DNA of 64,000 nt, taken from contig CAIXKE010000092.1 in assembly GCA_903919975.1 (NCBI GenBank), positions 1 to 64,000 of the forward strand, read 5' to 3'. The notes beneath the pieces were generated by a model that saw only the letters and a list, made by a program, of their open reading frames with translations, was not told the origin of the DNA and ran no database searches. This document shows positions 16,278-19,706 of this stretch, piece by piece. How positions within the stretch are numbered: position 1 is the stretch's first letter; each line of letters begins with the position of its first letter. The translations under genes were made by a program, and so were the position numbers. This DNA comes from Akkermansiaceae bacterium. GTDB lineage: Bacteria; Verrucomicrobiota; Verrucomicrobiia; Verrucomicrobiales; Akkermansiaceae.

Positions 16278-19200
16278 TCACGACACGTAACCCAGCCACG
16301 GACCCAGCCATTTCTCGGCTTCTTCAAGACTCATGCCCTTGCGTTTGGCGTAGTCCTCGATCTGATCTTTCTGCAGTTCCGAGATCATGAAGTAATGGCT
16401 ATCCGGATGCGAGAAATACAGCCCGCAAACCGCCGCGCCGGGATGCATGGCGCAGCTTTCGGTGAGAGTAACGCCAGTTGCCTCCGGCGCGTCCAGCAGA
16501 TCGAAAAGGATCGGTTTTTCGGTGTGATCCGGCTGCGCGGGATATCCCGGAGCGGGACGAATGCCGCGGTAGTTCTCATGGATCAATTGCGCAGTGGTGA
16601 GCTCGGTTTCCGTCTCATATCCCCACTCGATGCGGGCGCGGTGATGCAGCAACTCCGCAAAGGCCTCGGCGAAGCGATCGGCGATGGCTTTGACCATGAT
16701 CGAGCCGTAAGGATCGTGCTCTTTCTCAAGCTCCGCCGCGAATTCATCCGCGCCATGAATGCCAACCACGAAGCCGCCGATGTAGTCCTGAATTTCCCCT
16801 CCTGCCACCCAATCCGCGAGTGCGACATTGGGTTTTCCAGAGTCTTTCTTGATCTGCTGGCGCAGGGTGTGGAAACGGGTGCGCTCGCTGCTGCGGCTCT
16901 CATCGGTCCAGACGATGATGTCGTCGCCTTCGGCATTGGCCGGAAAGAAGCCATACATGCCACGCGCTTGAAATCGATCCTCGGCGATGATCCGGTCGAT
17001 CCAGGTGAGCGCATCCAGATAGAGTTTGCCAGCCTCGGCGGCACCATCCGTGTTTTTGGTTTTGAGAATCTTCTTCTCGCGGTCCCACACGCCACGGAGT
17101 TCCCAAGCATGGAAGAAGGGCGTCCAGTCGATGTATTCCGCGAGCTCGCGGAGCGAAACAGTGGCGCGGGCGTCCCGCCCGCAGCCAATCTCTTTGTGAT
17201 CGCCTTTCCATTCAGTGACGTGCCTCAAGATATAGGCTCTTTGATTGTGAAAATCATCAACGCCACGAATCAAATGATCATAACTTTCCTGCTGCCAGAA
17301 TTTACCGGTTCTACCAAGAATACGGTTCGCTTCTTTAGCAGTGAAAGATTTCCAAGATTGTAGAATTCCAGACAAATCATGGTTACCAAGAGGCCGCACA
17401 ATCGCATGAACGTGATTCGGCATCACGCACCAAGACAACAGATCATATCGCTCGCCATCGAAATGGCGCAAAGCGGAAGCCATCATCTCAGCGATCTCCG
17501 GGTTATTCAGCCAAGCGGGGCCATGGCCACATTCCAATGCCTTTTCCATGGTTTCATGATAGGATTCAGCGAGGCGATCCCGGGCACCTTTGGCGAGCGA
17601 ATCATCGCCCTTGTCGAGAGCCTGAGCCTCGAGATCCGTCCACTGTTTTTTGAGCGCCAGATATTCGTGGATCGCTTTTTGTGGGATCGTGTCCACCAAC
17701 CGAAAAGTGACCGCATAGGTCGCCTGGTCTTGGGTCCAGTGAGGGAGAGCCCGCTGTGATTTCTGGATCTCGCGGTTATTGGAAATGAAGGATGGCTTTT
17801 TGGCTGCGGGCGGGACGCCCGCGCCACTGATCGTTCTTGTTCCAAGAAACGAGGGAACCGGCGGCGCGTAGTTTTCCCAGTCGAACTGCGGGCCGGCGGC
17901 ACGCGCTTGAGCGAGGGTGAGCGTTTCCTTTTTTGGGCCGCCGATGAAATTATCACGCAGCACCTTTTGCTTGGCACGGTTTTCTGTAGCGAAGGCTTCG
18001 CGCTGGTCTTTGGAAATCAGTGAGGTGGTGACGGGCACCGAGCGTGAGGCGTCGAGCACGTGAACCACCGGCCCGGAGTAATGCTCGGCGATCTTGATGG
18101 CGGTGTGCGCGGCCGAGGTGGTGGCCCCGCCGACGAGCAATGGCACTTTGAATCCGCGACGTTCCATTTCCTTGGCGACGTGTACCATCTCGTCCAGCGA
18201 GGGCGTGATCAACCCGGATAGACCGACAACATCCGCGCCGATCTCAATGGCTTTGGCGAGAATCTTGTCGCAGGAAACCATGACTCCCATGTCGGTGACT
18301 TCGAAGCCATTGCATGCAAGCACCACGCCGACGATGTTCTTGCCGATGTCATGGACATCGCCTTTGACGGTGGCGATGAGAAAGCGTCCGGCGGAGCGTC
18401 CGCGTTCGGCGAGGCGCAGCGCCTCATCATCGGTTAGATAAGGATCGTTCTCCTTGATCGCCGCAATGTCGCCAGCAAGAAACTCGGCTTTTTCCGCTTC
18501 CATGAACGGCGTGAGCCAGGCGACCGCCTTCTTCATCACACGGGCGGATTTCACCACTTGCGGGAGGAACATTTTCCCCGCGCCGAAAAGATCGCCGACG
18601 ATGCCCATGCCATCCATCAGCGGGCCTTCGATGACCTTGAGTGGACGTCCGTATTTCGCGAGCGCGGCCTCGGTGTCCTCGTCGATGTATTTGTCGATGC
18701 CTCTCAGCAACGCGTGTTCGAGGCGTTTTTCCACGGATTCTTCGCGCCACGAGAGGTCTTCCTCGATTTTCTTGCCGCCATGGCCCTTGAAGCTTTCGGC
18801 GAGTTCGAGCAAGCGCTCGGTGGCGTCCGGGCGGCGGTTGAGCAACACGTCCTCGACGCATTCGAGCAAGTCTTTCGGAATCTCGTCATAAACTTCGAGC
18901 ATCCCGGCATTGACGATGCCCATGTCCATACCGGCCTTGCCCGCATGATAGAGAAAGGCGGAGTGCATCGCCTCGCGCACCTTGTTGTTGCCGCGGAAGG
19001 AGAATGAAATGTTGGAAACGCCGCCGGATACTTTGGCTCCGGGGAGGTTCTCCTTGATCCAGCGGGTGGCGTTGATGAAATCGAGCGCGTAGTTGTTGTG
19101 CTCCTCGATGCCGGTGGCGACGGTTAGAATGTTCGGGTCGAAAATGATGTCATCCGGATTGAAGCCGACTTCATCGACAAGTATCCGGTAGGCGCGCTCG

Positions 19201-19706
19201 CAAATTCGGATTTTCTCCTCATAAGAAGCGGCTTGGCCGTTTTCATCGAAGGCCATCACGACCACCGCCGCACCGTAACGCATGATGTGCCGCGCCTGTT
19301 GTTTGAAATTCTCTTCGCCCTCCTTGAGCGAGATCGAGTTCACGATGCCTTTTCCCTGAAGGTATTTGAGCCCCTCCTCAAGGATTTCCCACTTCGAGGA
19401 ATCCACCATGATCGGGACCTTCGCGACATCCGGCTCGCCTTGCAGGAGTTGCAGGAAACGACTCATCATCGCCTTGCCGTCGATGAGTCCGTCATCGAAA
19501 CAGATATCAATGACATTGGCACCGTTGGCGACCTGCTGGCGAGCCACTTCCACAGCGGCTTCGAGGTCGCCGGCACGGACTAGCTTCGCAAATTGCGGCG
19601 AACCGGCCACGTTGGCGCGCTCGCCGATCATCAGGAAGCGCTTGTCGGAAGTGTGGTTGTAAGCCTCCGTGCCGGATAGGCGGAGTGCGTGGGGAATAGT
19701 TTTCAT
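16278..19706 (-). CDS. metH: Methionine synthase, pterin/B12/activation subunit, containing an in-frame RAYT transposase
   Basis: This B12-dependent enzyme transfers methyl from 5-methyltetrahydrofolate to homocysteine. Order in the 1142-residue frame: pterin-binding domain ([36 protein letters not shown]), cap and B12 domain (about 300-600; [14 protein letters not shown] near 449, [19 protein letters not shown]), linker PSFLGTRTI, then a foreign block of about 224 residues (about 626-849). The host sequence resumes at [22 protein letters not shown] and runs through the SAM-activation domain ([41 protein letters not shown]). Without the block the length fits MetH minus its homocysteine domain. 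That domain is encoded separately 8 bp upstream. Whether the chimera folds and works is unknown. Confidence 0.93.
17159..17829 (-). mobile_element. REP-associated tyrosine transposase (RAYT, Y1/HUH) embedded in metH, bounded by inverted REPs
   Basis: The translated block starts near [20 protein letters not shown] and contains the Y1 HUH motif MPNHVHAIV (codons at 17397-17420). The catalytic Tyr lies in [12 protein letters not shown] (codon 17280-17282), with [13 protein letters not shown] following. These are RAYT hallmarks. Each edge carries the same 30 bp in opposite orientation (17159-17188 and 17800-17829), holding the hairpin GCGGGC-GGGAC-GCCCGC. The REP edges are translated as GAGVPPAA and GCGRDARAT. 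No ATG, GTG or TTG precedes LPHW within the block in this frame, so translation seems to depend on the metH start. There is no clear target duplication. Confidence 0.93.

What the first reader, a model, noticed from the sequence alone, without database searches (positions are those of the whole stretch)
16278..19706. A complete RAYT transposase sits in frame inside methionine synthase
Directly seen: the metH frame runs uninterrupted through the pterin and B12 domains, then about 224 residues of a RAYT (HUH motif NHVHAIV, catalytic Tyr in [10 protein letters not shown]), then the whole SAM-reactivation domain. The insert sits exactly in the linker before EYIDWTPFF. It is bounded by a 30-bp exact inverted repeat carrying the REP hairpin. 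No ATG/GTG/TTG start lies between the REP and the RAYT core, so it appears to be translated only as part of MetH. RAYTs are normally single, free-standing, domesticated genes. A tolerated in-frame insertion into an essential metabolic enzyme, with both partners looking intact, would be unusual. It would couple transposase level to metH expression.
Basis: partly seen in the sequence, partly recalled or inferred. Interest (0 to 1): 0.95.

Follow-up and report, generated by a model that had tools for sequence, protein, structure and literature searches.

The report
Transposase domains nested inside essential enzymes
A nearly complete DNA-cutting transposase is encoded in the middle of methionine synthase, and related bacteria carry related transposases in the same reading frame inside other indispensable enzymes, at a few recurring sites where they come, go and get replaced like inteins but with no sign of splicing.

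Summary
Window ORF 16278-19706 (-) is one open frame: pterin and B12 domains, a REP-flanked RAYT (insert of 223 residues), then the intact activation domain. The named catalytic Tyr is wrong: it is Tyr825 (AYIL), invariant in 122 of 122 RAYT rows; the Tyr of QQESYDH varies. The insert is no oddity. I examined 96 distinct insertions in Verrucomicrobiales; 93 have host homology on both sides in one ORF, mostly MetH (two main sites), IspG, LeuRS and CarB. The fused copies are the only methionine synthase and only IspG found in this genome; fused LeuRS is the only LeuRS locus in 20 of 20 occupied genomes. Occupancy of MetH site B needs 16-17 changes on a 64-protein MetH tree. Hosts 96-98% identical hold RAYTs 55-59% identical at that site, while one 733-bp block is identical in hosts whose nearby flanks are 69-80% identical. 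RAYTs group by host gene (12 changes; shuffled mean 75). HUH and Tyr are invariant; dN/dS is 0.04-0.36. Best reading: a selfish REP-RAYT element that persists by in-frame residence in indispensable genes and turns over at recurring sites, intein-like but unspliced. Whether RAYT chemistry or host recombination moves it is open.

The parts
16278..19706 (-). MetH second-subunit ORF (pterin, B12, activation domains) with the embedded RAYT, 1142 aa
19714..20844 (-). Homocysteine S-methyltransferase domain of MetH as its own ORF, 376 aa
17157..17825 (-). Insert, fusion residues 628-850 (223 aa), between GTRTIS and SLREL; absent at this place from the relatives aligned
   Evidence: alignment with relatives
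17800..17829 (-). REP hairpin at the 5' end of the insert, read as SGAGVPPAA
17159..17188 (-). REP hairpin at the 3' end of the insert, inverted copy, read as GRDARAT
17193..17801 (-). RAYT domain (fusion residues 636-838) as modelled: pLDDT 93.7, best PDB match 4er8
17406..17414 (-). HUH motif histidines 765 and 767 (MPNHVH)
   Evidence: invariant in 98 of 98 embedded and 24 of 24 solo rows
17232..17234 (-). Catalytic tyrosine 825 (AYILRH)
   Evidence: aligned with the corresponding stretch of E. coli TnpAREP, 4er8; invariant in 122 of 122 rows

Best explanation
The insert is a REP-RAYT-REP element whose two REP hairpins and transposase are all stop-free in one frame. It therefore sits inside an indispensable enzyme as an extra folded domain and is translated as part of it. 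Because the host gene is the only copy, a frameshift, stop or imprecise deletion in the transposase is lethal or costly; only in-frame loss is tolerated. This 'frame lock' keeps the RAYT intact without splicing. The RAYT (HUH nuclease with Tyr) is expected to act on REP single strands while fused, or after the fusion is cut. The element moves laterally between species and re-enters the same few permissive sites (a homing-like cycle: empty, occupied, replaced, lost with or without a REP footprint). Shown by sequence: in-frame fusion, single-copy hosts, conserved catalytic residues, purifying selection, patchy single-site occupancy, loyalty of RAYT lineages to a host gene, one clear recent lateral transfer. 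Inferred: translation and activity of the fused protein, frame lock as the cause of persistence, RAYT chemistry as the cause of movement.
For: In frame and intact; 95 of 98 embedded rows (93 of 96 distinct insertions) have host homology on both sides in one ORF. Single copies: one MetH and no MetE-family match in G000 (genome 97.6% complete), one IspG in G000, one LeuRS locus in 20 of 20 occupied genomes. Not an assembly slip: occupied sites lie in single-contig genomes G004 (MetH), G147 and G228 (IspG) and in named cultured strains Roseibacillus persicicus KCTC 12988 and Rubritalea marina DSM 17716 (L108, L113). Lineage by host gene: 12 label changes on a tree of 122 RAYT rows, least possible 9, shuffled mean 75.4, 0 of 200 as low. 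Turnover: MetH site B occupied in 24 of 64 proteins that I put together, 16-17 changes by parsimony, 13 forced by well supported branches; MetH hosts 96-98% identical carry RAYTs 55-59% identical at site B, and empty relatives are 94-98% identical to occupied ones in five of five compared pairs. Lateral transfer: 733 identical bp in G015/G017 with flanks at 69-80% within 300 bp. RAYT maintained: H, H and Tyr in 98 of 98 embedded rows; dN/dS 0.04-0.36 in every compared pair where it could be computed. REP family: in single-contig genome G004 the REP that flanks its MetH RAYT occurs 34 times at up to 3 mismatches, control 0; 23 against 0 in G000, the window's own two included. Possible footprint: L084, the MetH nearest to the window's, has a lone REP-like hairpin at site A without RAYT.
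Against: No expression, protein or activity data. Only one transfer is clear-cut; L040/L044 is moderate and the IspG pairs are weak because their flanks are also similar. In other pairs RAYT dS exceeds host dS (L229/L242 0.77 against 0.36; L211/L269 1.16 against 0.77; L070/L071 2.30 against 0.53). RAYT and host identities at site B correlate (Spearman 0.63), so much of the history is vertical. Site and lineage do not match perfectly: L213 sits at site B but groups with the site-A RAYTs, L266 is placed at site A but not with them, LeuRS RAYTs need four label changes, and the IspG group holds at least two insertion places. A predicted co-variation of REP tag and 5' dinucleotide was not found (p = 1). 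In 26 of 32 rows an in-frame GTG, TTG or ATG does lie within 45 codons upstream of the RAYT core, so internal initiation is possible in most copies. The window copy lacks the usual NP after the Tyr, so its own activity is uncertain. LeuRS of G059 is split over two frames near its N-terminus, which may be a sequence error or damage.
Confidence: 0.68

Rival explanations
1. Passive spread: the insertions are old and rare, and ordinary homologous recombination of host-gene alleles carries them between species and removes them. The RAYT plays no part in its own movement.
For: RAYT and host identity correlate; the identical block in G015/G017 includes about 20 and 40 nt of host sequence; RAYT lineages stay with their host gene; other low-dS pairs show no sharp edge at the element.
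Against: The G015/G017 tract is only 733 bp with flanks 69-80% identical within 300 bp, short for recombination between diverged alleles. Very different RAYTs at one site in hosts 96-98% identical need replacement of the insert with little of the host.
Confidence: 0.3
2. Frame lock only: the RAYT is inactive cargo whose sequence is kept because a misfolded or broken insert would spoil the host enzyme.
For: dN is higher in the RAYT than in the host in most compared pairs; the window copy lacks NP.
Against: Catalytic H, H and Tyr are invariant in 98 of 98 rows, which folding alone does not demand; a matching REP family is dispersed in G004.
Confidence: 0.2
3. Domestication: the RAYT domain serves the host enzyme, for instance by regulating it.
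For: Purifying selection and recurrence at the same sites.
Against: Empty sites in very close relatives and unrelated hosts such as MetH, IspG, LeuRS, CarB and restriction enzymes.
Confidence: 0.07
4. The insert is removed after transcription or translation (self-splicing RNA, intein-like splicing or proteolysis).
For: It would explain tolerance in enzymes such as LeuRS.
Against: No Rfam match in window 15900-21200 at E <= 0.1; no intein family among the Pfam matches shown. Proteolysis was not tested.
Confidence: 0.08
5. Assembly artefact or pseudogene.
For: Most of the genomes whose titles I saw are metagenome assemblies.
Against: Single-contig genomes and cultured strains show it; net inserts are multiples of three in 11 of 15 attempted comparisons and the other 4 could not be read.
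Confidence: 0.01

Closest known systems
RAYT / TnpAREP and REPtrons (IS200/IS605-like Y1 transposases)
   Same: HUH plus one Tyr, REP hairpins in inverse orientation at both ends, same fold (4er8 best match), dispersed REP copies
   Different: Described as single-copy, vertically inherited, domesticated genes that do not copy themselves and for which RAYT-mediated transfer is thought very unlikely (PMC8049555, passages seen). Here they lie in frame inside indispensable genes, two in the window's own genome, with single-site turnover.
Intragenic REPs (Opitutus terrae and others) and Rickettsia palindromic elements
   Same: Palindromic repeats inserted in frame into housekeeping genes (PMC3733652 section 15; PMC10969869 passages)
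   Different: Those add about 20-80 residues of repeat; here a whole transposase of about 200 residues lies between the two repeats.
Inteins with homing endonucleases (general knowledge; abstracts in the listing)
   Same: In-frame nuclease inside essential genes, patchy at fixed sites, element lineage tied to the site
   Different: No splicing domain found; the insert remains a domain of the enzyme as far as sequence shows; HUH transposase instead of a homing endonuclease.
IStrons
   Same: Insertion-sequence elements tolerated inside genes (PMC4227781, start of abstract in the listing)
   Different: IStrons splice out at RNA level with a group I intron; no Rfam family matches here.

Membership tests
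RAYT / TnpAREP | HUH motif | tested here: met
   MPNHVH; both His in 98 of 98 embedded and 24 of 24 solo rows
RAYT / TnpAREP | Single catalytic Tyr in the C-terminal helix (Y115 in E. coli) | tested here: met
   Tyr825 lies at the matching end of the alignment with 4er8, invariant in 122 of 122 rows; Y115F is the published catalytic mutant (PMC8266576, passage)
RAYT / TnpAREP | NP motif shortly after the Tyr (a feature of these relatives, not known to be essential) | tested here: not met
   Window copy has HV where 90% or more of 109 rows have NP
RAYT / TnpAREP | Fold of Y1 transposases | tested here: met
   Model pLDDT 93.7; 4er8 first, E 2.5e-6
RAYT / TnpAREP | Gene flanked by inverted REPs with a GTAG-type tag | tested here: met
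   30-bp exact inverse pair with a GTGG tag; 86 of 96 embedded RAYTs have inverted repeats and 60 of 96 a GTAG or GTGG near the arm
RAYT / TnpAREP | REP family dispersed in the genome | tested here: met
   23 against 0 in G000, 34 against 0 in G004, at up to 3 mismatches
RAYT / TnpAREP | Cleaves single-stranded REP | not testable with these tools
   needs biochemistry
Intein | Splicing domain and junction residues | tested here: not met
   No intein family in the Pfam tables; insert ends read SGAG and RATVS
Homing element (by behaviour) | Patchy occupancy of one site with lateral transfer into orthologous sites | tested here: met
   one clear transfer
Homing element (by behaviour) | Movement depends on the element's own nuclease | not testable with these tools
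   needs a genetic assay
IStron / self-splicing intron | Group I or II intron around the insert | tested here: not met
   No Rfam match at E <= 0.1 in window 15900-21200

The most novel reading that the evidence does not exclude
A new class of mobile element: a homing HUH transposase that needs no splicing. It protects itself by being a translated domain of single-copy indispensable enzymes, acts from within that enzyme on REP sequences genome-wide, and invades empty orthologous sites by its own single-strand chemistry.
Probability: 0.4. Interest if true: 0.96.

Novelty: new variant of a known kind. Interest (0 to 1): 0.92.

Why it matters
RAYTs are described as domesticated, vertically inherited, single-copy genes (PMC8049555, passages). 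Here the same enzymes live inside MetH, IspG, LeuRS, CarB and other genes, with intact catalytic residues and replaced at recurring sites. That gives a testable reason for persistence (the host cannot break the frame), a natural set of permissive insertion sites in core enzymes, and a splicing-free counterpart to inteins. Two named cultured strains carry it in MetH, so it can be tested directly.

Tried and rejected
Assembly error and pseudogene: rejected (single-contig genomes, cultured strains, inserts in multiples of three). Intron: Rfam scan of window 15900-21200 empty at E <= 0.1. Tag-guided cleavage test: I asked whether GTAG or GTGG tags go with CT or CC just before them, as passages of PMC8266576 suggest; no association (Fisher p = 1; tags found in 60 of 96 and the tag finder is crude). 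Whole-fusion structure model: host activation domain well predicted, RAYT C-terminal part poor, pTM 0.44, so I do not use it for domain arrangement; the RAYT alone models well. Empty-site comparison: 15 pairs tried, 4 not readable because motifs were not found or matched elsewhere. IspG empty sites: 7 of 18 loci not parsed by my motifs. A decayed REP in the empty IspG of G022 (L294) is only my reading of the letters. Literature: the papers listed (25 of 1,917; 14 of 14; 15 of 367; 15 of 422; none found; 10 of 36) include, as far as titles, abstract starts and passages show, none that describes a RAYT ORF in frame inside a host gene; nearest is PMC6006769, which discarded a few over-long proteins as gene fusions or annotation errors (passage). 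Most subscription journals and all preprints are outside that library.

Limits of the counts: long-frame loci were fetched because their frames were long, so the 96 insertions are not a random sample. Of 149 rows that I retyped by hand from the listing for, 73 had frames of 800 aa or more and 62 had 320 or fewer; that listing is itself cut, and searches scored at most 11 and 8 candidates a genome. The 64 MetH proteins were enriched in occupied ones by my choice and hold one identical pair. Trees are quick ones with SH-aLRT support only; 40 of 116 and 16 of 60 inner branches are weak. One search compared only pairs with RAYT identity of 62% or more; dS was not measurable or near saturation in many. 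The pairs were chosen by hand. The 20 phylum-wide loci were checked by Pfam only, not for host homology on both sides. My notebook says 34 rows; the output has 32.
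Full report
The thing itself. The ORF 16278-19706 (-) encodes 1142 residues without a stop. Pfam finds the pterin domain, both B12 domains, a Y1 transposase and then the nearly full-length activation domain. The homocysteine domain of MetH is a separate ORF just upstream, 19714-20844 (-). The relatives aligned lack the block between GTRTI and LREL. 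It starts and ends in a 30-bp exact inverted repeat whose arms fold as hairpins and are read as SGAGVPPAA and GRDARAT. The RAYT part models at pLDDT 93.7; its best structural match is the E. coli REP-associated transposase bound to a REP, 4er8, which is also the only sequence match in the PDB at E <= 1 (7.6e-4). The window copy has HV instead of the usual NP after Tyr825.

Host dependence. G000 has one MetH locus; the other MetH-like matches are short. No MetE-family member is found, while the same search rings in 10 of 14 control genomes. G000 also carries a RAYT in frame inside its only IspG. So two central enzymes of this organism contain a transposase. Completeness is 97.6%, so a missed second copy is possible but unlikely for both.

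Not a single accident. A search of 39 genomes, the window's own and 38 relatives, showed members of the genus with RAYTs at a second MetH site, about 120 residues into the activation domain (site B), and many RAYTs in other long frames. A model of 13 RAYTs (A1) matched 169 of 288 Verrucomicrobiales genomes at E <= 1e-25 and 109 of 387 genomes drawn across the phylum at E <= 1e-30; these are RAYT matches of any kind. Of 149 listed rows, 73 lie in frames of 800 residues or more and 62 in frames of 320 or fewer. I fetched 100 long-frame loci besides the MetH regions. The first 80 fall, with the MetH and IspG loci, into nine host groups: IspG, MetH, LeuRS, CarB, a DUF5107-TPR protein, HsdR, an adenosine deaminase, an Eco57I-type enzyme and a NUDIX protein (Pfam). 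In 95 of 98 rows (93 of 96 distinct insertions) host homology lies on both sides of the RAYT in one ORF; two exceptions are cut by contig ends and one (NUDIX) is near the N-terminus. The last 20, drawn across the phylum, add by Pfam a valyl-tRNA synthetase, HypF, exonuclease VII large subunit, radical-SAM B12 proteins, an FAD oxidoreductase, RarA/MgsA-like ATPases and more restriction enzymes; 18 of 20 had a host family, two did not, and host homology on both sides was not tested for these. Locus L077 has RAYTs at both MetH sites in one ORF of 1425 aa.

Essential single copies. For LeuRS, a universal essential enzyme (general knowledge), I searched 23 genomes: all 20 with a RAYT in LeuRS have that fused gene as the only LeuRS locus at E <= 1e-30, and three others (G000, G004, G228) have an uninterrupted LeuRS. 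In G059 the LeuRS is split over two frames near its N-terminus. A non-functional fusion in most of these species is very hard to believe, although enzyme activity was not measured.

REP ends. Inverted repeats of score 13 or more flank 86 of 96 embedded RAYTs and 12 of 24 solo ones; shuffles give 0 of 96 and distant host flanks 1 of 90. In single-contig genome G004 the REP that flanks its MetH RAYT occurs 34 times at up to 3 mismatches (15 without), control 0, four times as close inverse pairs. The other RAYT of G004, near 1446475, has no copy of it closer than about 3.6 kb. In G000 the window REP occurs 23 times at up to 3 mismatches, control 0.

Dynamics. On a tree of 122 RAYT rows the host-gene label needs 12 changes (least 9; shuffled mean 75.4; 0 of 200 as low) and the 27 IspG RAYTs form one group (support 83). 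Yet site B of MetH, occupied in 24 of the 64 MetH proteins that I put together, needs 16-17 changes (13 forced by well supported branches), close to the shuffled mean of 19.2 (43 of 500 shuffles as low), so occupancy is hardly clustered on the host tree. Four MetH hosts 96-98% identical hold two RAYT types that are 55-59% identical across types and 87-89% within them, and an empty relative is 97% identical to two of them. G015 and G017 share a 733-bp identical block covering the element plus about 20 and 40 nt of host, while the host within 300 bp on either side is 69-80% identical and farther out 79-89%. Other pairs with lower RAYT than host dS (L040/L044 0.29 against 1.07; L063/L238 0.09 against 0.60; L068/L249 0.27 against 0.84) agree, but their flanks show no sharp edge, so I count one clear transfer. 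In still other pairs RAYT dS is higher than host dS (L229/L242 0.77 against 0.36; L211/L269 1.16 against 0.77; L070/L071 2.30 against 0.53). RAYT dN/dS is 0.04-0.36 where it could be computed. L084, the MetH nearest to the window's on the tree, has a lone REP-like hairpin at site A, as expected of loss between repeats or of a solo REP insertion.

Exceptions to a tidy picture. L213 is a site-B insert whose RAYT groups with the site-A ones; L266 is placed at site A but not with them; LeuRS RAYTs need four changes; three IspG RAYTs (L066, L227, L253) sit at a later place in IspG. Host and RAYT identities at site B correlate (Spearman 0.63, 276 pairs). An in-frame start codon lies within 45 codons upstream of the RAYT core in 26 of 32 rows, though not in the window. 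So vertical descent, replacement and transfer all contribute, and separate translation is not excluded elsewhere.

Mechanism, shown and inferred. Shown: in-frame residence, single-copy hosts, intact catalytic residues, purifying selection, recurring sites, turnover. Inferred: the element persists because the host cannot tolerate a broken frame; the fused protein is made and still works on REPs; entry into empty sites is by RAYT action or by short-tract recombination. Sequence alone cannot separate these last two.

Known context. Seen as passages: RAYTs are described as single-copy, vertically inherited, domesticated, and not self-copying (PMC8049555); RPE fusions are reviewed in PMC10969869; TnpAREP cleaves REP at CT, with Y115F as catalytic mutant (PMC8266576). 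One section read: REPs lie in frame in genes of Opitutus terrae and Rickettsia (PMC3733652, section 15). The papers listed in searches show none on a RAYT ORF in frame inside a host gene; most of those lists were cut.

Noticed in passing
window 19706-20844: MetH is split: the homocysteine domain is its own ORF a few bases upstream of the pterin-B12-activation ORF; relatives' second ORFs (about 920 aa without insert) suggest that the split is shared by close relatives.
   Followed up: partly
L077:3950-8227: One MetH ORF of 1425 aa carries two RAYTs, one at each main site.
   Followed up: partly
L314, L315, L317, L318, L324 and others: REP-derived peptides such as [15 protein letters not shown] and RRDACDT (my reading) recur in frame around the RAYTs, sometimes in several copies.
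   Followed up: no
L312, L316, L319-L322, L328, L329, L331: Among the phylum-wide loci the hosts are often restriction-modification enzymes (Eco57I, MmeI and HsdR types).
   Followed up: no
L066, L227, L253: IspG RAYTs at a later place in the protein than in the other IspG cases.
   Followed up: partly
L078, L079, L083, L133: Titles of several metagenome records (Akkermansia muciniphila, Klebsiella pneumoniae) look at odds with the MetH that they hold.
   Followed up: no
L228: The LeuRS frame of G115 appears 2175 aa long only because a long run of N follows the LeuRS part.
   Followed up: no
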